Of a DNA stretch of 43,008 nt, positions 1,676 through 43,008 are shown in pieces; positions within the stretch are counted from its first letter, which is position 1; each line of letters opens with the position of its first letter. Source of the stretch: Leptolyngbya sp. GTDB taxonomy: Bacteria; Cyanobacteriota; Cyanobacteriia; Leptolyngbyales; Leptolyngbyaceae. The notes below the pieces were generated by a model. The model made no database searches. It was not told the DNA's origin and saw only the letters and a program-made list of their open reading frames with translations. Location of the stretch: the NCBI GenBank assembly GCA_003249025.1, contig QBMH01000011.1, positions 1 through 43,008 on the forward strand, written 5' to 3'. The position numbers and the translations under genes were made by a program.

Positions 1676-4600
1676 ATGGCTCAGACTTGGTATCGGCATC
1701 GGGCACCTGTCGCGATCGCTAGCTTCGGACTTGCTGGATTATGCTTCACTGCGATCCCGTCTTCGGCTCAGATCAGTCCCGATCAAACCTTGGGAAACGA
1801 GTCATCGATTGTTTCGCCGAATGTTGCGGTGCACGGATTTCCAGCAGAACTGATCCAGGGCGGAGCCATACGCGGGGTAAATTTATTTCATAGCTTTTCA
1901 CAATTTAATGTGCGGGATGGGCAGCGAGTTTACTTTGCCAACCCAGTCGGCATTGAAACCATCTTAAGCCGCGTCACGGGAGCCGATCCCTCTAAAATCT
2001 TCGGAACCTTGGGCGTGAATGGCACAGCCAACCTGTTTTTGATCAATCCGAACGGCATTTTGTTTGGACCTAATGCCCGTTTAGATGTGGCGGGTTCTTT
2101 TTTAGCCAGTACCGCCAGCAGCTTCAAGTTTCCCGATGGCAGCGAATTCAGCGCCACGAATCCTCAAGCTCCGCCATTACTAACGGTGAATATCCGTCCT
2201 GGTTTGCAATATGGCGCAAACCACCAGGCAACGATCGCCAATGCTGGCAACCTGACCGCCGGAAAAGACCTGACCTTGGCAGCAGGCAACCTGGATCTGC
2301 AAGGACAACTGCAAGCAGGTGGCGACTTAACCCTGAGAGCATTGGACACCGTGAAAATTCGCGATCGCCTCACCACTCCCTTCATCGCTGCCGCAGGTGG
2401 AGCGCTGACCGTACAAGGCGATAGCGGGATCGACATCTTCGCCCTCAATCACCTCAACAGCGGCTTATTTTCTGGCGGCGATCTGGTGCTGCGAAGTAAC
2501 AGCGCAGTCGGCGGCGATGCCCATTACACAGCAGGCGGCGACTTTCGGATTGAAACATTAAATGCCACGCTTGGAAATCTTGTCAGTCCTCACGATCCAG
2601 TGATTCGCGCCCAAGGAAATGTTATTTTTAACGACTACACGGGTGCCTCACTTCATATTTTGGCTGGAGGCAGCGTTATTGTGTCAGGAACGATTTTCAT
2701 TACCGCTCCCGACGGCGTGAATGGCTTAGTTGAAACCATGATGCTATCGGATGGCAAAACAGTCGTAAACATCAATGGCAGAACCACTCCAACCTTAGAT
2801 ATTCGTGCCGGAACAACTGCTGTGGGCATCCCAATTGGGTTGACCGGTGCCGGAGTGGGTTTTATACCAGCGCCTATCATTGGCATTACTCCAACCAATG
2901 CTGACATTCGCCTTGGCACTATTTTCACCCCAGCCAACAGTGAAGGGTTAGTTCTTCTCACGAATCAATATCAGCCCAATGCGCTCAATGGCTCAATTCA
3001 GGTCAATCTGATCGACACGTCCGTCAACTCCTTTCTAACTAATGGCGGTGCAGTATTTATCGATTCTCGTAGCGATGTGATTGCAAGTACCCTCAACACC
3101 TCCGCATCGATTGGTAGCGGTGGGCGAGTGGTGCTGTTTGCGAAGGGATCGATCGCAACGGATGCAATCAACGCCGCAACCTCTAGCCTCATCAGCCTAA
3201 ATGGGGGCGAGGTCACTCTCCAGTCAACTGGCAATCTGACCACAGGCGAAATCAGGACAGATGGGGGCTTGTTTGGGGCAGGGGGCGCGATCAACCTGAC
3301 CAGCACGGCTGGCACCATTGGATTTCGCCCTGGTAGTCAAGTCAACAGTGCAACCTACGGCGCAGCATCCAGCGGCAATATTGCTCTCACGGCTAGAGCC
3401 GTAGACATTACACCGGGCACATCTCTAATCACGTCGTCTTTTGCCACTGGAGCCGCCGGAAACATCACGATTAATTCACCGGCTGTCAGCCTATCTGGGG
3501 CGCAACTTCTGGCTGTGGCTAGTAACGTGGGGAGTGCTGGAGCGATCGCTATCAATACCGGCACAACGGGAACAGTAACCTTTCAAGATCGTTCAGTTGC
3601 CTCCTCGTTTACCATTGGCACGGGTGCAGCAGGTGCTATTTCCATTAACACCGGACAGTTGACGGTACAAAACTCTGCGATCGCTAGTGTTACGCTGGAC
3701 GCGATCGACTTAGGATTAACTGGATTTACGGGCGGTGGTCAAGGCGGCAATTTGACTATCAACGCCGCTGAGTCAGTCAATCTTATGAACACCTTACCAA
3801 CGAATGTTTTTGACTTTGATGTCGAAACACCTGCTGGTATCAGTACTATTTCTGCACCTGTTGGTCTGTTTAGCCGCAGCCAGTCATCCGGCAAAGCAGG
3901 TGATATTCAAATTAGCACTCAGCAGTTGGTTGTTGAAGGTGGCGCATCCATTGCCACCTCGACTAGCCGTAGTGGTCAAGCTGGTAGCCTAATCGTCAAT
4001 GCTTCCAGTTCGGTTGAGTTAAGTGGCACCAGTCTCTCCGCTCAATCGGCTGGTGAATTGGTTCGGGTTTCCACAGGATTGTTTACCGAAGCCGATGCCA
4101 ATTCTACGGGAAATGCTGGCAGCATTGAAATCGACACAAGGCGATTGCTAGTGCGAGATGGTGCGGTTGTGTCTACCTCTGCCGCAGAAAGAACATCGGG
4201 GCGGGGTGGAGATTTGACCATTAGGGCTGATACTGTCGAGGTGATTGGAACCTCTGCCGATGTACTAAACCGGAGCGCATTGATCACGGCAACAGTGGGT
4301 ACGGGTGACGCTGGAAATCTTATGATTGACACCCGTCAGCTATGGGTTCTCAATGGAGGAGTGATTTCTAGCAGCACCTTAGATCAAGGACGCAGCGGTA
4401 GTTTAACCATCAATGCCTCGGAATCGGTCAATTTGATTGGCACTGCACCCGATACTCTACCCAGCACACTGGCAACCAGTACCGCTGGAACAGGAGATGG
4501 TGGCACGCTCACTCTTCAAACCCGCCGCCTAGTAGTTCTAGATGGAGCCTTGGTTTCTGCTGCTACCTATAACCAGGGTGTTGGGGGGAATCTGCATATT

Positions 4601-5896
4601 AACGCTTCTGAGGCAGTGGAATTAGCGGGGCAAGCTAGGGATGGTCGTCCAGGAGGATTGTCTGCCGGGTCTGGAATTGAGGGTTATTCTCAGGTGATTG
4701 ATCGCCTACTGCAAAGCTTCCAGATTGATAAGCAAATTGATACCTCCAAAGCATCAGGGGCAGGAGGAAATGTGCGGGTTGCAACGAACTCGCTAACGCT
4801 GCGAGACGGAGCCACGATTTCAACTGAAACCATTGGTCCCGGTATGGGTGGCGACATTTTGGTACAAGCCTCAACTGTCTCGTTAAATACAGCAGCTCAA
4901 GTTTCTGCCCGAACATCTGGGGCGGGGGCGGCAGGGGATATTGTACTTCAGGTGGGCGATCACCTATCGCTTACTGGCTTAGGTACTGGCTTGTTTGCCA
5001 ACACTGAATCACAATCAACTGGCAGAGGTGGTAGCATTTTTGTGACCGCTCCAACCAGCCTAATTCAAGACGGGGCAGGCATTAGCGTCGGCAGTCGGGG
5101 TCAGGGTCAGGGCGGTAATATTCAAGTGAGTGGTCGAACGCTCACGCTCCGCGATCGCGCTTATCTCACGGCTGAAACTCTCAGTACTGACGGAGGTAAT
5201 ATCGCAATCACTTTAGCTGACCTGTTGGTATTGCGCCGGAATAGCTTAATTTCAACCACCGCAGGCACAGCTCAACGTGGCGGCAATGGAGGCAACATCA
5301 CCATTTATATTCCCGATGGGTTTATTGTCGCGGTGCGATCGGAAAATAGCGATATTGCTGCGAATGCATTTACAGGCAACGGGGGACAGGTCAATATTAC
5401 TGCCTATGGCATCTTTGGCATTCAACCTCGCCCGAAGCTCACGCCATTCAGTGATATTACTGCCAGTTCGCAGTTTGGCATCAATGGCACCATTCTCCTC
5501 AGTACGCCCAATGTTGATCCAAGTCGGGGATTAGTTGCCTTTCCTGGAAATCTTGTTGATCCTGCCCGCCAGATTGCCCAGACCTGTGTTCCTCAAGGAG
5601 CAGCACGAGCGAATTCCTTCACAATAACGGGGCGCGCAGGATTACCTGCCAGTCCCGATGAACCATTACAAAGCCAAGAGGGACTGGCAGATTGGGTCAT
5701 TGTTCAGGATGAAAGCAGTCCATTCAGGGGGAATGGAAAAACACAAAGCAGTTTGCCTTTACAGGTGCCCTCACTGATTGAAGCTCAAGGATGGGTGCAA
5801 GAAGCAGATGGCACGATCGCTCTGATTGCCCACGCCCCAAACGCAGTTCCCGCCAAGTCCTGGCTGCGATCGCCGGACTGCGGCGAGAAAAAGTAG
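1676..5896 (+). CDS. Filamentous hemagglutinin N-terminal domain protein (TpsA-like exoprotein)
   Basis: A 1406-residue secreted beta-helix protein of the two-partner secretion type. A signal peptide covers residues 1-32 (basic start, hydrophobic GLAGLCFTA, cleavage near SSAQ). The TPS/hemagglutination-activity domain follows to about residue 170 and includes the hallmark NLFLINPNGILFGPNARLDV. The bulk is made of degenerate repeats such as NLTINASESVNL and DTRQLxVxxGxxIS that are expected to stack as a right-handed beta-helix. The C-terminal end carries the cyanobacterial signature Cys-x-n-SFTITGRAGLP near residue 1320. Its outer-membrane transporter (TpsB/FhaC type) is not in the window. The ATG is preceded only by a weak AAAGGCG. 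It is likely surface-exposed or released; the ligand is unknown. Confidence 0.93.
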   Translation: MAQTWYRHRAPVAIASFGLAGLCFTAIPSSAQISPDQTLGNESSIVSPNVAVHGFPAELIQGGAIRGVNLFHSFSQFNVRDGQRVYFANPVGIETILSRVTGADPSKIFGTLGVNGTANLFLINPNGILFGPNARLDVAGSFLASTASSFKFPDGSEFSATNPQAPPLLTVNIRPGLQYGANHQATIANAGNLTAGKDLTLAAGNLDLQGQLQAGGDLTLRALDTVKIRDRLTTPFIAAAGGALTVQGDSGIDIFALNHLNSGLFSGGDLVLRSNSAVGGDAHYTAGGDFRIETLNATLGNLVSPHDPVIRAQGNVIFNDYTGASLHILAGGSVIVSGTIFITAPDGVNGLVETMMLSDGKTVVNINGRTTPTLDIRAGTTAVGIPIGLTGAGVGFIPAPIIGITPTNADIRLGTIFTPANSEGLVLLTNQYQPNALNGSIQVNLIDTSVNSFLTNGGAVFIDSRSDVIASTLNTSASIGSGGRVVLFAKGSIATDAINAATSSLISLNGGEVTLQSTGNLTTGEIRTDGGLFGAGGAINLTSTAGTIGFRPGSQVNSATYGAASSGNIALTARAVDITPGTSLITSSFATGAAGNITINSPAVSLSGAQLLAVASNVGSAGAIAINTGTTGTVTFQDRSVASSFTIGTGAAGAISINTGQLTVQNSAIASVTLDAIDLGLTGFTGGGQGGNLTINAAESVNLMNTLPTNVFDFDVETPAGISTISAPVGLFSRSQSSGKAGDIQISTQQLVVEGGASIATSTSRSGQAGSLIVNASSSVELSGTSLSAQSAGELVRVSTGLFTEADANSTGNAGSIEIDTRRLLVRDGAVVSTSAAERTSGRGGDLTIRADTVEVIGTSADVLNRSALITATVGTGDAGNLMIDTRQLWVLNGGVISSSTLDQGRSGSLTINASESVNLIGTAPDTLPSTLATSTAGTGDGGTLTLQTRRLVVLDGALVSAATYNQGVGGNLHINASEAVELAGQARDGRPGGLSAGSGIEGYSQVIDRLLQSFQIDKQIDTSKASGAGGNVRVATNSLTLRDGATISTETIGPGMGGDILVQASTVSLNTAAQVSARTSGAGAAGDIVLQVGDHLSLTGLGTGLFANTESQSTGRGGSIFVTAPTSLIQDGAGISVGSRGQGQGGNIQVSGRTLTLRDRAYLTAETLSTDGGNIAITLADLLVLRRNSLISTTAGTAQRGGNGGNITIYIPDGFIVAVRSENSDIAANAFTGNGGQVNITAYGIFGIQPRPKLTPFSDITASSQFGINGTILLSTPNVDPSRGLVAFPGNLVDPARQIAQTCVPQGAARANSFTITGRAGLPASPDEPLQSQEGLADWVIVQDESSPFRGNGKTQSSLPLQVPSLIEAQGWVQEADGTIALIAHAPNAVPAKSWLRSPDCGEKK

Positions 5897-39326: not shown

Positions 39327-42300
39327 TCACCACGGGCTGCCGATCATGGTAAACGGTGCCCAATAATAGGGATGGCTGAGGACGCGATCGCGCGTAGTCG
39401 GCGTATCTTCTGGTAACAGAATTGGCGTTTCTTTTGCGCCTAAAATTTGGTTGCCATCAATGGATATTTGTCCTTTGATCATGGCAATTTGGGCTTGCCT
39501 GAGCGCTTCGGCTTTAATCGGTGCAGAGTGCAACTCTCCATAAAAACGGGCAATCAGCGCGGTGGTCGCCACATCATTCACTGCCCATAGGCTTGCAACG
39601 GCAGTTTTCACACCCGCTTGCACCGCGAGTCCGCCAAAGCCCAGTTCTGCATCGCGATCGCCCAGCGCCGTTGAACAGGCACTCAGCACCAGCAATTCTA
39701 CAGGTGGATTGTTCCATCCGAGTTGGCGTACCTGATCCATATGCAGGCGCTCATTCCACAGTTGAATGTAGGAGTTGCCAATGATGCCAGGTTGAAAATT
39801 TGCATGAGTGGCAAAATGAATCATGCCATAAGGTTGTTGCTGTCGAGCCGCTTTTAGAGCTTCGAGAGTGGCAGTTTCGTTCAAATAATATCGTCCTGAC
39901 CAAAGCTGGTTTACTAAGGTAGAAACTTCCACTGGCACTGATGGCAGCGGAACTTGTCCATCTGTACTTTCAGAAATGCCTAGCCCTAACAGCTTAAAGT
40001 CTTGAATTTTACGAAAGCGTGTATCCGTCAAGCTAAGGCTTGGCATCAAGCCAATACTGTAGTCTTCCACTAAAAAGTTTTGTCCGTTATGCAGGGCAGC
40101 AACTGGCAGCGATCGCAACCCGGTATCCATCAGAAACACCAGATTGGTGATTTTGCGAAACTGGAGTTGCTCGATTACGGGGGCAACCAACCAGCCATAC
40201 AACTGCTGCCCCAACTCCAAATAGCGCTTAGTGCGAGTTTTACGGGGATCAGAGACTTCCAGCCGAAACGCCTGTGCCACTGCCAATACCTTGTCACGAG
40301 TTGCCGTTGGAATTCGTCGCCGGATCACATCGCCTTTTGCAGTCACTACCAAAATTTCAAGCTGATCGGTATCGCGATCGCGGGTGGCTCCTGCCGCTCC
40401 TGCGCCGCTTAAAGTTGCCACGTCTGCTGCCTTCAAAGATTCCGGCACAAAGCTAATGTAGATAAAAGCAGGTTTTGCTCCGGTTTCCCGCTCAATCGTT
40501 TGGGCAATTTCCTTTTGCTGATCGATTGATTTGGTGATCGGTTCAGGCAGCCCCAAGTAGACCGAAAACGCATCTGTAAAACGCTGTTCAGGGGTAATGC
40601 TCTCAAGTGTAAATTCCGGTGGAGAAGGATTGTCAAATTTGGGGTCGAGGACTTGGCAAGTCGTCAACACGCAAATATCGGGAATAGTAGTGATAGTAGT
40701 TGAGCGAACGTTTAGGGCGATCGCCCGTGGCGCAGAAACCGTAATCACATCATCCACCGTCACTGAAAACGCATTGCTCAACAACCCAACAAATCCGGGT
40801 GGCGGGACAAACTGCAACGTCGCATCCGCCGGAATAATTGCCCCCGGAATGGCATTGACTCCGTTAATTCGGAGAATGGCTCCTGGGGCGATCGCGGCGA
40901 CTCGAATGGTCAAAGGGCTATCTGCATTCAGGTCGGCAGGAAGCAAGCCCAGCGAGGCAACCGAAAAGTTTAACGGTTGATCAATGGTCGAGTCAGGCAG
41001 AGGCGCGATCGGGTTCAGCGTTGGCGGGGTGTTATTGAAGGTGATTTGCACATTTCCACTCGCAGATTGAAACGGACTAGAGGCAAACGGAAATGTACCC
41101 GAAACAATTTCTATGCCAGTAGCGATCGTTCCAGTGGTAATCGTTCCAACGGTGCCATTACCAGTATTGGCTGTCACAGCCCCCGTTCCAACGGTAAAAG
41201 GTTGGTTTGCGATGCCACCATCGTGAGTAATGCTGACTGTCCCACTAGTGCCAGTAGCCCCAAAACCACTGGCAATAATCGTGTCAAAACCATTTACAAA
41301 CCCGATGCCCCGAACCTGTCCTTTTGCCGAAATAATTACGTCGCCACCATTGGCACCGAATAAACCTCGCGTGTCGATACTTTGAAAGCTGATGTTGCCT
41401 CCATTACTGCTTGTGGTCAAAACAACGGTGTTACCCGAAACCGGAGGAGCAGACCCTGCTGAGGCTGTAGATTGGATTGTGCCAACCGCAATTGATCCAG
41501 TGGCACTTGTGATGCGAATAGCTCCTCCAGTTTGAGGTGCACCAACGCTATAGCCGTTGCCAATCAATTCACCAGCTGTAATGTTTCCTGTTGCCTGTAA
41601 TGTAATATTGCCACCATTTCCACCAACCTCAATGTCAGAGTTAGAGGTATTGATAGTTCCCAGGAAAAGAGTATTGGCTGCAAAAGTAATGTTTGTACTA
41701 GGTGCAATAATACCTGTTCCATTGGTGGAGATCGCACCTCCTGCTTGAAAGGTGATTGCAGTGGGCTGAGCAAAAGGGGTGTAGTCTAACGTTCCAATGG
41801 CTGGATCAAAGGTGATGTTGTTGGTCGCTTGCAAGATCACAGTCGCACCAGCCCCCCCATTTAGCAGAGCATTTTGTGAAATTGTGAATGTTGCGTTTCC
41901 GCCATCTCCTGCCAAAATCTGGTTGTCAAGTAGTTGAAGATCATCGGCACCACCGCCTGCTGCAATAATAATGTTGGTCGGATCGAGTAATAGCGTTCCA
42001 GTGTTGCCGTTTGCAGCCGCCGTATCCACAGTGCCTCGATACTGCAAATTCTCCTTGCCCGATACTTCCACAAACCCGCCATCACCGCTGATTGTACCGC
42101 CACGTGCCGTAATGGTGCCGCCAAACTGGGTTGCTTTATCTGCCCAAACAATCACTTTACCGCCATTTCCCTGTTGCCCTGCATCGGCTTTGAGAGTCGA
42201 GTCAGCGCTGATGTAGGTTTGGGTCGCGGTGGGTAAGGTGTTGCCGCCTTGATAGTCTCCACCAACACGAATGGTGCCGCCACTCGCCCCTGAAGCATCG

Positions 42301-43008
42301 AGGTTGGCACCCACTAAACCGACCTTGTTACCAACGACAGTAATGGAGGGGTTAGAAGACAGGGAACTAGGAGCTTGAGCATTTGCCACAGACACTTGAC
42401 CGCTGACGATCGCAGTTCCGACAGTAGTAGGAATAGTGACACCCGAACTAGTTAACTGGACTGAACCATTGGGATTAACGGTGAGTCCGGTAGCACCGCT
42501 GAGGTTGCCACCAGTGAGGAGTTGGGGAAGTGTGGGAGCAGGGGAGGCAAGGGGAGCCGAGGCAGCTAGCGGCTGAAATTCTAGATTGAGCAAACTCCCT
42601 GGCTGACTGAGGCGTACCAGGTTTTCTCCAGGAACAGCAGCGATCGTAATGCTGCCGCCTGGAGCGAAGAGGGTGCCCGTGTTAACGACCGTGCCGCCCA
42701 GTAGGGTGATGCTCTGCCCTTGCCCAACTGCCAGATTTCCGGCGTTGATAATTGACCCTGGCGCGATCGCGGAAAACGCAAAGCTGTTAGGATTGCCAGT
42801 TAAGTTGGTGTAATCATTGGCACCGATCGCATTAAACAACCCTCCAGTGCCAAACCCGATCGCATTGGCGGTAGTTGCAGTAAACGCAGCAGGTACATTC
42901 AGGCTGGCATTGGTGCCAAAAATAATTCCGGCGGGGTTGAGCAAAAATAGATTTGGTGTGCCGCCGCTGACTTGAACCAGCCCGTTGATCACCGAAGGAT
43001 TATTGCCA
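39327..43008 (-). CDS. Hemagglutinin-CHAT fusion protein, 5' end beyond window
   Basis: An open frame continues off the right edge; 1226 residues are in view. The N-terminal visible part is the filamentous-hemagglutinin TPS domain (TPNLFLLNPAGIIFGTNASL), followed by beta-helix repeats and a large Gly/Asn/Thr-rich region, then one Ig/cadherin-like domain (about bases 40700-41050). The C-terminal 350-400 residues are a CHAT caspase-like domain: the catalytic His codon is at 39804-39806 (HFATHANFQ) and the catalytic Cys codon at 39675-39677 (LLVLSACSTALGD). The His-Cys dyad is intact, so a peptidase activity is plausible. The signal peptide must lie upstream of the window. Related fusions exist in cyanobacteria; the substrate is unknown. 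Confidence 0.9.
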   Translation of the reverse strand, partial: GNNPSVINGLVQVSGGTPNLFLLNPAGIIFGTNASLNVPAAFTATTANAIGFGTGGLFNAIGANDYTNLTGNPNSFAFSAIAPGSIINAGNLAVGQGQSITLLGGTVVNTGTLFAPGGSITIAAVPGENLVRLSQPGSLLNLEFQPLAASAPLASPAPTLPQLLTGGNLSGATGLTVNPNGSVQLTSSGVTIPTTVGTAIVSGQVSVANAQAPSSLSSNPSITVVGNKVGLVGANLDASGASGGTIRVGGDYQGGNTLPTATQTYISADSTLKADAGQQGNGGKVIVWADKATQFGGTITARGGTISGDGGFVEVSGKENLQYRGTVDTAAANGNTGTLLLDPTNIIIAAGGGADDLQLLDNQILAGDGGNATFTISQNALLNGGAGATVILQATNNITFDPAIGTLDYTPFAQPTAITFQAGGAISTNGTGIIAPSTNITFAANTLFLGTINTSNSDIEVGGNGGNITLQATGNITAGELIGNGYSVGAPQTGGAIRITSATGSIAVGTIQSTASAGSAPPVSGNTVVLTTSSNGGNISFQSIDTRGLFGANGGDVIISAKGQVRGIGFVNGFDTIIASGFGATGTSGTVSITHDGGIANQPFTVGTGAVTANTGNGTVGTITTGTIATGIEIVSGTFPFASSPFQSASGNVQITFNNTPPTLNPIAPLPDSTIDQPLNFSVASLGLLPADLNADSPLTIRVAAIAPGAILRINGVNAIPGAIIPADATLQFVPPPGFVGLLSNAFSVTVDDVITVSAPRAIALNVRSTTITTIPDICVLTTCQVLDPKFDNPSPPEFTLESITPEQRFTDAFSVYLGLPEPITKSIDQQKEIAQTIERETGAKPAFIYISFVPESLKAADVATLSGAGAAGATRDRDTDQLEILVVTAKGDVIRRRIPTATRDKVLAVAQAFRLEVSDPRKTRTKRYLELGQQLYGWLVAPVIEQLQFRKITNLVFLMDTGLRSLPVAALHNGQNFLVEDYSIGLMPSLSLTDTRFRKIQDFKLLGLGISESTDGQVPLPSVPVEVSTLVNQLWSGRYYLNETATLEALKAARQQQPYGMIHFATHANFQPGIIGNSYIQLWNERLHMDQVRQLGWNNPPVELLVLSACSTALGDRDAELGFGGLAVQAGVKTAVASLWAVNDVATTALIARFYGELHSAPIKAEALRQAQIAMIKGQISIDGNQILGAKETPILLPEDTPTTRDRVLSHPYYWAPFTMIGSPW

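What the first reader, a model, noticed from the sequence alone, without database searches (positions are those of the whole stretch)
39327..43008. Hemagglutinin-like exoprotein fused to an intact caspase-like CHAT domain
An outward-secreted beta-helix of two-partner-secretion type ends in a CHAT peptidase with both catalytic residues. Most CHAT proteins are cytoplasmic and pair with TPR or defence partners. A secreted CHAT could act on neighbouring cells, on its own adhesin (self-release), or as a contact-dependent effector. The right-hand gene neighbourhood is cut off, so the transporter or an immunity gene could lie just outside.
Basis: partly seen in the sequence, partly recalled or inferred. 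Interest (0 to 1): 0.6.

Follow-up and report, generated by a model that had tools for sequence, protein, structure and literature searches.

The report
Secreted caspase-like fibre with attached glycosyltransferase
The window holds most of a cyanobacterial gene for a secreted fibre-like protein that ends in a caspase-like protease; its missing front end, found on another contig of the same genome, appears to be a sugar-transferring enzyme, so one reading frame would combine three activities that bacteria normally encode apart.

Summary
Observation confirmed. The minus-strand ORF 39327-43007 is a two-partner-secretion (TPS) exoprotein (TPS domain, predicted beta-helix and Ig-like stalk) ending in a CHAT domain with an intact His/Cys pair. 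Its predicted fold matches Csx29/TPR-CHAT (Z 27) and separase (Z 25).

Interpretation only partly supported. TPS-CHAT fusions are common in cyanobacteria: 53 of 80 independently fetched loci are single TPS-CHAT frames. No immunity gene or variable toxin tip was seen. The contig ends 390 bp beyond the window.

The larger finding lies outside the window. The closest relatives continue N-terminally, without a stop, into a family-2 glycosyltransferase (GT2), then a basic plus hydrophobic signal segment ending AxAQ, then TPS. The GT2 half of this genome's copy very probably lies at the end of contig C69, behind a DUF928 gene. All three domains are under purifying selection (dN/dS 0.02-0.18). In Nostocales a TpsB gene is usually divergent and adjacent. 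Stand-alone GT2 relatives adjoin 31-35 kb exoprotein genes on plasmids.

Best model: GT2 modifies the exoprotein before export; signal peptidase separates them; the fibre displays the CHAT peptidase outside. Architecture well supported; glycosylation, cleavage and substrate inferred. No paper found describing it. New variant of a known kind.

The parts
39327..43007 (-). 3' part of the GT2-signal-TPS-stalk-CHAT gene (1226 residues of the product; stop codon 39327-39329)
   Evidence: Unbroken frame; Pfam and NCBIfam
42594..43007 (-). C-terminal two thirds of the TPS secretion domain (rest lies beyond the window in contig C22)
   Evidence: PF05860 matches
40985..42593 (-). All-beta repetitive stalk, predicted beta-helix
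   Evidence: Model pLDDT 67, pTM 0.60; best PDB match EtpA E 4e-8
40698..40984 (-). Ig/cadherin-like beta domain closing the stalk (approximate bounds)
   Evidence: Strand pattern at residues about 675-770 of the model; no Pfam match; inference
40656..40673 (-). Paired-cysteine motif CVLTTC in the linker between stalk and CHAT module
   Evidence: Present in 24 of 26 GT2-TPS-CHAT and 4 of 67 other TPS-CHAT proteins
40218..40592 (-). Helical and beta region before the Pfam CHAT match, part of the same folded module (counterpart of the first CHAT-like half of Csx29)
   Evidence: Model residues 37-160, pLDDT mostly above 90; aligned to Csx29 from its residue 345
39336..40217 (-). CHAT domain
   Evidence: PF12770 E 8.5e-67, 5.2e-68
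39804..39806 (-). Candidate catalytic His (HFATH motif)
   Evidence: Invariant; 43 residues before the Cys as in Csx29
39675..39677 (-). Candidate catalytic Cys (SACST motif)
   Evidence: Invariant

Best explanation
The window gene is the 3' three quarters of a GT2 - internal signal - TPS - beta stalk - CHAT gene. Proposed working: the GT2 domain folds in the cytoplasm and adds sugars to the exoprotein joined to it before export; the basic and hydrophobic segment engages Sec; signal peptidase cuts after AxA, leaving GT2 at the inner membrane and freeing the TPS exoprotein; a TpsB pore carries it across the outer membrane; the folded stalk displays a CHAT cysteine peptidase at or near the cell surface, where it cleaves a surface or secreted protein (its own fibre or a partner such as the DUF928/CHASE2 products). 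Shown by sequence: the single frame in relatives, domain identities, intact GT2 and CHAT motifs, selection on all domains, association with TpsB, DUF928 and CHASE2. Strongly inferred: that this genome's GT2 half is the one on contig C69. Inferred only: glycosylation of the exoprotein, signal-peptidase cleavage, surface location, peptidase activity and substrate. The confidence given is for the mechanism as a whole; for the architecture alone it is about 0.9.
For: Relatives at 44-60% identity run unbroken into GT2. The window gene nests in a clade whose other members all have GT2. Contig C69 of the same genome ends in an open GT2 frame 70-72% identical to the same relatives, the only GT2 of this kind in the genome at E below 1e-70. 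GT2 motifs DDGS, DSDD and ED intact. Hydrophobic segment in 25 of 26, AxAQ-like site in 25 of 26, net positive residues before it in 23 of 26. dN/dS 0.08-0.18 for GT2. TpsB adjacent in 7 of 9 scored GT2-TPS-CHAT loci. Stand-alone GT2 relatives adjoin giant exoprotein genes. Cytoplasmic glycosylation of a TPS adhesin is known for HMW1/HMW1C (PMC3983070). CHAT model and fold match.
Against: No glycosylation or proteolysis is shown. The closest solved GT2 is chondroitin synthase, a polysaccharide polymerase, so the acceptor could be a glycan. GT2 has been lost or gained several times, so the exoprotein can do without it. The C22-C69 link rests on two open halves, not on one contig or on synteny. 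GT2 genes are frequent in cyanobacteria, and some stand-alone relatives have no exoprotein neighbour.
Confidence: 0.5

Rival explanations
1. Self-processing adhesin: CHAT acts only in cis, cutting its own linker or stalk to release or mature the fibre, with no partner substrate.
For: CHAT and stalk are in one chain in most loci; the linker before CHAT is long, proline-rich and disordered in the model. TPS adhesins such as HMW1 are known to be cleaved and tethered or released (PMC3983070).
Against: In several loci of this genome CHAT is encoded next to, not within, the TPS protein. No conserved cleavage motif was seen in the linker.
Confidence: 0.25
2. Extracytoplasmic signalling or self-recognition system: exported CHAT cleaves a DUF928 or other periplasmic protein, and the neighbouring CHASE2 receptor reports this through TIR, GGDEF or CHAT output domains.
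For: Nine of 11 DUF928 genes of this genome lie in a gene run with CHAT or TPS-CHAT genes; CHASE2 proteins with TIR or GGDEF domains adjoin them.
Against: Many TPS-CHAT loci have neither gene nearby: 9 of 27 loci without GT2 have any of ShlB, DUF928 or CHASE2 within 5 kb. No direct evidence of cleavage.
Confidence: 0.2
3. The GT2 part does not act on the exoprotein: it makes or extends a cell-surface glycan, or serves only as an extended signal region that slows export.
For: Closest solved GT2 is a polysaccharide polymerase. Extended signal peptides that slow export are known in FhaB (PMC5422565). GT2 is repeatedly lost or gained.
Against: GT2 sequence and motifs are under purifying selection, more than a mere spacer would need; sister GT2 genes adjoin other giant exoproteins.
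Confidence: 0.3
4. Contact-dependent toxin: the CHAT domain is the toxic tip delivered into neighbouring cells, with an immunity gene nearby.
For: TPS exoproteins with toxic C-termini exist (CdiA; PMC5422565).
Against: No same-strand gene directly downstream; the neighbour is convergent. No pretoxin or toxin-tip family matched. The C-terminus is the most conserved part and shows strong purifying selection, unlike variable toxin tips.
Confidence: 0.07
5. The GT2-TPS join is an annotation or assembly artefact of two separate genes.
For: In the window's own genome the halves lie on different contigs.
Against: 26 distinct genes show the join, some in single-contig genomes; few frames offer a restart codon with a ribosome site between GT2 and the signal segment, and three offer none at all.
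Confidence: 0.04

Closest known systems
Two-partner-secretion exoproteins (TpsA: FHA, HMW1, EtpA)
   Same: TPS domain directly after a signal segment, beta-helical stalk, TpsB gene beside relatives
   Different: Carries a C-terminal CHAT peptidase, and in this clade an enzyme domain in front of the signal segment
HMW1A/HMW1B/HMW1C of Haemophilus influenzae
   Same: TPS exoprotein with a linked glycosyltransferase; a conserved cysteine pair near the C-terminal side
   Different: HMW1C is a separate enzyme of another glycosyltransferase family; here a GT2 domain is fused in cis; no CHAT in HMW1
TPR-CHAT / Csx29 of Craspase, and separase
   Same: Fold of the whole last 420 residues (Z 27 and 25) and spacing of the His/Cys pair
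   Different: Cytoplasmic, regulated by TPR and guide RNA or by securin; here exported and mounted on a beta stalk without TPR
Cyanobacterial TPS / TpsB / TPR-CHAT / DUF928 / CHASE2 gene runs
   Same: Same partner families side by side in this genome (L032, L033, L034, L037)
   Different: There TPS and CHAT are separate genes, CHAT carries TPR, and no GT2 is fused
HetF of Anabaena (CHAT-domain divisome protein)
   Same: Cyanobacterial CHAT protein with putative protease activity (PMC8406250)
   Different: Not a TPS exoprotein; works at the division site

Membership tests
TpsA two-partner-secretion exoprotein | TPS secretion domain at the start of the exported part | tested here: met
   PF05860 E 4.8e-21 in the window part, remainder beyond the gap
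TpsA two-partner-secretion exoprotein | Sec signal directly before the TPS domain | tested here: met
   Hydrophobic segment with AQAQ before TPS in the contig beyond the window and in 25 of 26 relatives, but internal in the chain
TpsA two-partner-secretion exoprotein | Beta-helical exoprotein | tested here: met
   All-beta model of moderate confidence, best PDB match EtpA
TpsA two-partner-secretion exoprotein | Cognate TpsB transporter | tested here: inconclusive
   Three ShlB genes elsewhere in this genome; adjacent in 7 of 9 scored GT2-TPS-CHAT relatives
CHAT / clan CD cysteine peptidase | CHAT sequence and fold | tested here: met
   PF12770 E 8.5e-67; Z 27 to Csx29
CHAT / clan CD cysteine peptidase | His/Cys catalytic pair | tested here: met
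   Invariant His and Cys, 43 residues apart
CHAT / clan CD cysteine peptidase | Proteolytic activity | not testable with these tools
   Needs a biochemical assay
TPR-CHAT (Csx29) | TPR repeats before CHAT | tested here: not met
   No TPR family matched; beta stalk instead
CDI / CdiA toxin | Immunity gene directly downstream | tested here: not met
   Next gene is convergent
CDI / CdiA toxin | Pretoxin domain and variable toxin tip | tested here: not met
   No such family; conserved C-terminus
Glycosyltransferase family 2 (relatives and own contig C69) | GT2 domain with DDGS, DxD and ED motifs | tested here: met
   PF00535 E 3e-27 to 5e-34 in relatives; motifs intact in the C69 half. This part lies outside the window
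HMW1-type TPS system with adhesin glycosylation | Glycosyltransferase of the HMW1C family | tested here: not met
   The fused enzyme matches GT2 families, not HMW1C
HMW1-type TPS system with adhesin glycosylation | Exoprotein modified by its linked glycosyltransferase | not testable with these tools
   Needs glycoproteomics

The most novel reading that the evidence does not exclude
One reading frame encodes a cytoplasmic GT2 that glycosylates, in cis and during synthesis, the exoprotein to which it is joined; an internal signal sequence and signal peptidase then split the chain into an inner-membrane enzyme and a surface fibre bearing a caspase-like peptidase. Such a self-glycosylating, self-splitting secretion precursor is, to my knowledge, undescribed.
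Probability: 0.3. Interest if true: 0.82.

Novelty: new variant of a known kind. Interest (0 to 1): 0.62.

Why it matters
CHAT proteins are studied mainly as cytoplasmic defence or CRISPR proteases, and HetF as a cell-division factor. Here a whole cyanobacterial lineage builds them into secreted fibres, linked to sensors (CHASE2 with TIR, GGDEF or CHAT) and to an unexplained family (DUF928), which makes an extracellular caspase-like pathway in multicellular bacteria testable. An enzyme fused in front of an internal signal sequence is also unusual for protein export: it would show how a folded cytoplasmic enzyme and a secreted fibre are made from one chain, and that modification of an adhesin can be hard-wired in cis.

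Tried and rejected
Assembly or ORF artefact: rejected, since the same single frame recurs in 26 distinct GT2-TPS-CHAT genes from many assemblies, including single-contig genomes. Separate GT2 gene merely in frame: unlikely; the junction is conserved, few frames offer a plausible restart codon, and three offer none. A sequence search of solved structures with the CHAT profile gave no hit at E 0.01; only fold comparison linked it to Csx29 and separase. Synteny of window or C69 neighbours with relatives, to prove the C22-C69 link: only the gene itself and DUF928 matched usefully, so the link rests on the two open halves. Plasmid hits for the CHAT region were mostly distant CHAT genes without long coverage. 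Literature searches for CHAT with hemagglutinin, two-partner secretion, CHASE2 or glycosyltransferase found no paper on such proteins; DUF928 occurs in one paper, on WD40 proteins. The library holds open-licence papers only, so absence there is weak evidence. No exhaustive count of TPS-CHAT per genome was made.
Full report
WHAT IS IN THE WINDOW. The frame 39327-43007 on the minus strand encodes 1226 residues, open at its 5' end. It starts inside a TPS secretion domain and ends in a CHAT domain. The window ends one base before a run of 50 N. Beyond that run the contig continues for 340 bases that carry the missing part of the TPS domain and a hydrophobic segment SLLPLLAAFPVVAGMGAVTQAQ; the flanks of the gap overlap by 81 bases with one mismatch, so the gap looks like a scaffolding artefact inside one gene.

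THE CHAT MODULE. The AlphaFold model of the last 457 residues is confident (pLDDT 88, pTM 0.87). Residues 35-457 align to Csx29/TPR-CHAT of Craspase with Z 27.0 over 332 residues (rmsd 3.3), to separase with Z 24.6, and to gingipains with Z about 18. The candidate catalytic His and Cys are 43 residues apart, as H615 and C658 are in Csx29 (PMC10028731), and are invariant in alignments of 19 and 28 sequences. No TPR precedes the module; a beta stalk does. The stalk model is of moderate confidence (pLDDT 67, pTM 0.60), all-beta, and its only PDB match under E 0.001 is the TPS adhesin EtpA.

THE FUSION IS COMMON IN CYANOBACTERIA. The linker plus CHAT region has relatives at E below 1e-60 in 106 of 144 related genomes. 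Of 40 loci that I picked from these, 38 are single TPS..CHAT frames. Of 80 loci fetched independently, 53 have TPS and CHAT in one frame. In this genome the same families also occur as neighbouring genes: TPS, ShlB and TPR-CHAT (L032); TPR-CHAT, TPS and DUF928 (L033); TIR-CHASE2, DUF928, TPS and TPR-CHAT (L034); TPR-CHAT, DUF928 and CHASE2 (L037). Nine of the 11 DUF928 genes lie in a gene run with a CHAT or TPS-CHAT gene (my reading). So a secreted CHAT protein is not an oddity here.

THE MISSING FRONT END. In the closest relatives the frame runs on N-terminally for about 250-470 residues. This part is a GT2 glycosyltransferase (Pfam E 3e-27 to 5e-34), followed by a conserved tail, basic residues, a hydrophobic stretch and an AxAQ-like site directly before TPS. 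In the CHAT tree the window gene nests in a 15-member clade in which every other member has GT2. In the window's own genome, contig C69 ends in an open frame with the same GT2, 70-72% identical to the same relatives, preceded by a DUF928 gene. A profile of the GT2-signal-TPS junction finds only this GT2 in the genome at E below 1e-70, and the window gene is the only TPS-CHAT gene I found there with its front missing. The C69 end is a CCCCGCA-type repeat, which would explain the break.

SELECTION AND SPREAD. dN/dS is 0.08-0.18 for GT2, 0.04-0.13 for TPS and 0.02-0.18 for CHAT over ten pairs; synonymous sites are near saturation in several pairs, so the values are rough. In a sample of 386 genomes drawn across the phylum, 23 hold a close GT2 of this kind and about 11 of these have it fused to TPS; the fusion is concentrated in the window's own family (15 other genomes) and in Nostocales. 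On the tree the GT2 label needs at least five changes, that is, repeated losses or gains; L101 looks like a remnant and L141 has a broken GT2. A paired-cysteine motif in the linker goes with GT2: 24 of 26 against 4 of 67, though the rows are not independent. HMW1 is tethered through a disulfide between two conserved cysteines (PMC3983070); whether this pair does the same is a guess.

CONTEXT. In Nostocales a TpsB gene is divergent and adjacent (7 of 9 scored GT2-TPS-CHAT loci). Stand-alone members of the same GT2 subfamily adjoin coding sequences of 31-35 kb on cyanobacterial plasmids, two of them with a toxin-secretion ABC transporter gene. They carry the name 'filamentous hemagglutinin outer membrane protein', presumably copied from GT2-TPS fusions. 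Others lie beside RHS-repeat genes or phage-tail-like genes, and some in unrelated contexts. The repeated link to large exported proteins supports, without proving, a role in modifying them. Among solved structures GT2 matches chondroitin synthase best (E 1.9e-47) and then GalT1 (5hea, E 5.9e-25); GalT1 is, from my own knowledge, an enzyme of adhesin glycosylation in a streptococcus.

MECHANISM. Shown: domain order, motifs, conservation, associations. Inferred: GT2 stays in the cytoplasm (it needs nucleotide sugars), signal peptidase splits the chain, TpsB exports the fibre, CHAT cuts outside. The precedent for cytoplasmic glycosylation of a TPS adhesin is HMW1/HMW1C. The toxin-tip reading is weak: no immunity gene, no pretoxin domain, conserved tip. 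Whether CHAT acts on its own fibre, on DUF928/CHASE2 partners or on other proteins is open.

VERDICT. The TPS-CHAT fusion is widespread and, as far as the open literature searched here shows, undescribed; the GT2-signal-TPS-CHAT chain is the surprising part. New variant of a known kind, interest 0.62.

Noticed in passing
window 1676-5896 (+): A second, complete TPS exoprotein gene (1406 aa, signal peptide, no CHAT) at the other end of the window.
   Followed up: no
L034 3091-6312; L041 2452-4314; L051 3071-5515: CHASE2 sensor proteins with three TIR domains, with GGDEF, and one whose frame also holds the CHAT match of contig C37 (probable CHAT-CHASE2 fusion), each beside DUF928.
   Followed up: partly
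L241, L242, L264: Stand-alone GT2 genes beside 31-35 kb exoprotein genes on cyanobacterial plasmids; they are annotated 'filamentous hemagglutinin outer membrane protein', apparently a transferred name.
   Followed up: partly
L245 9709-10482; L257 9599-10426: The same GT2 subfamily inside clusters of phage-tail-like genes (Tail_P2_I, Baseplate_J, DUF6519), possibly contractile injection systems.
   Followed up: partly
L248, L251, L265: The same GT2 subfamily, sometimes in tandem, near RHS-repeat genes.
   Followed up: partly
L134 11545-11568; L087 linker between GT2 and TPS: CCCCGCA-type short repeats read through in frame in the linker between GT2 and the signal segment; in L134 the repeat coincides with the contig end.
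   Followed up: no
L141 6674-11386; L101 7851-12008; L097 7934-12823: Truncated, remnant or motif-altered GT2 domains in front of intact TPS-CHAT, suggesting that GT2 can be lost.
   Followed up: partly
L047 5683-9480 (G000 contig C388): A second probable TPS-CHAT gene in the same genome; its frame ends at the start of CHAT close to the contig end.
   Followed up: no
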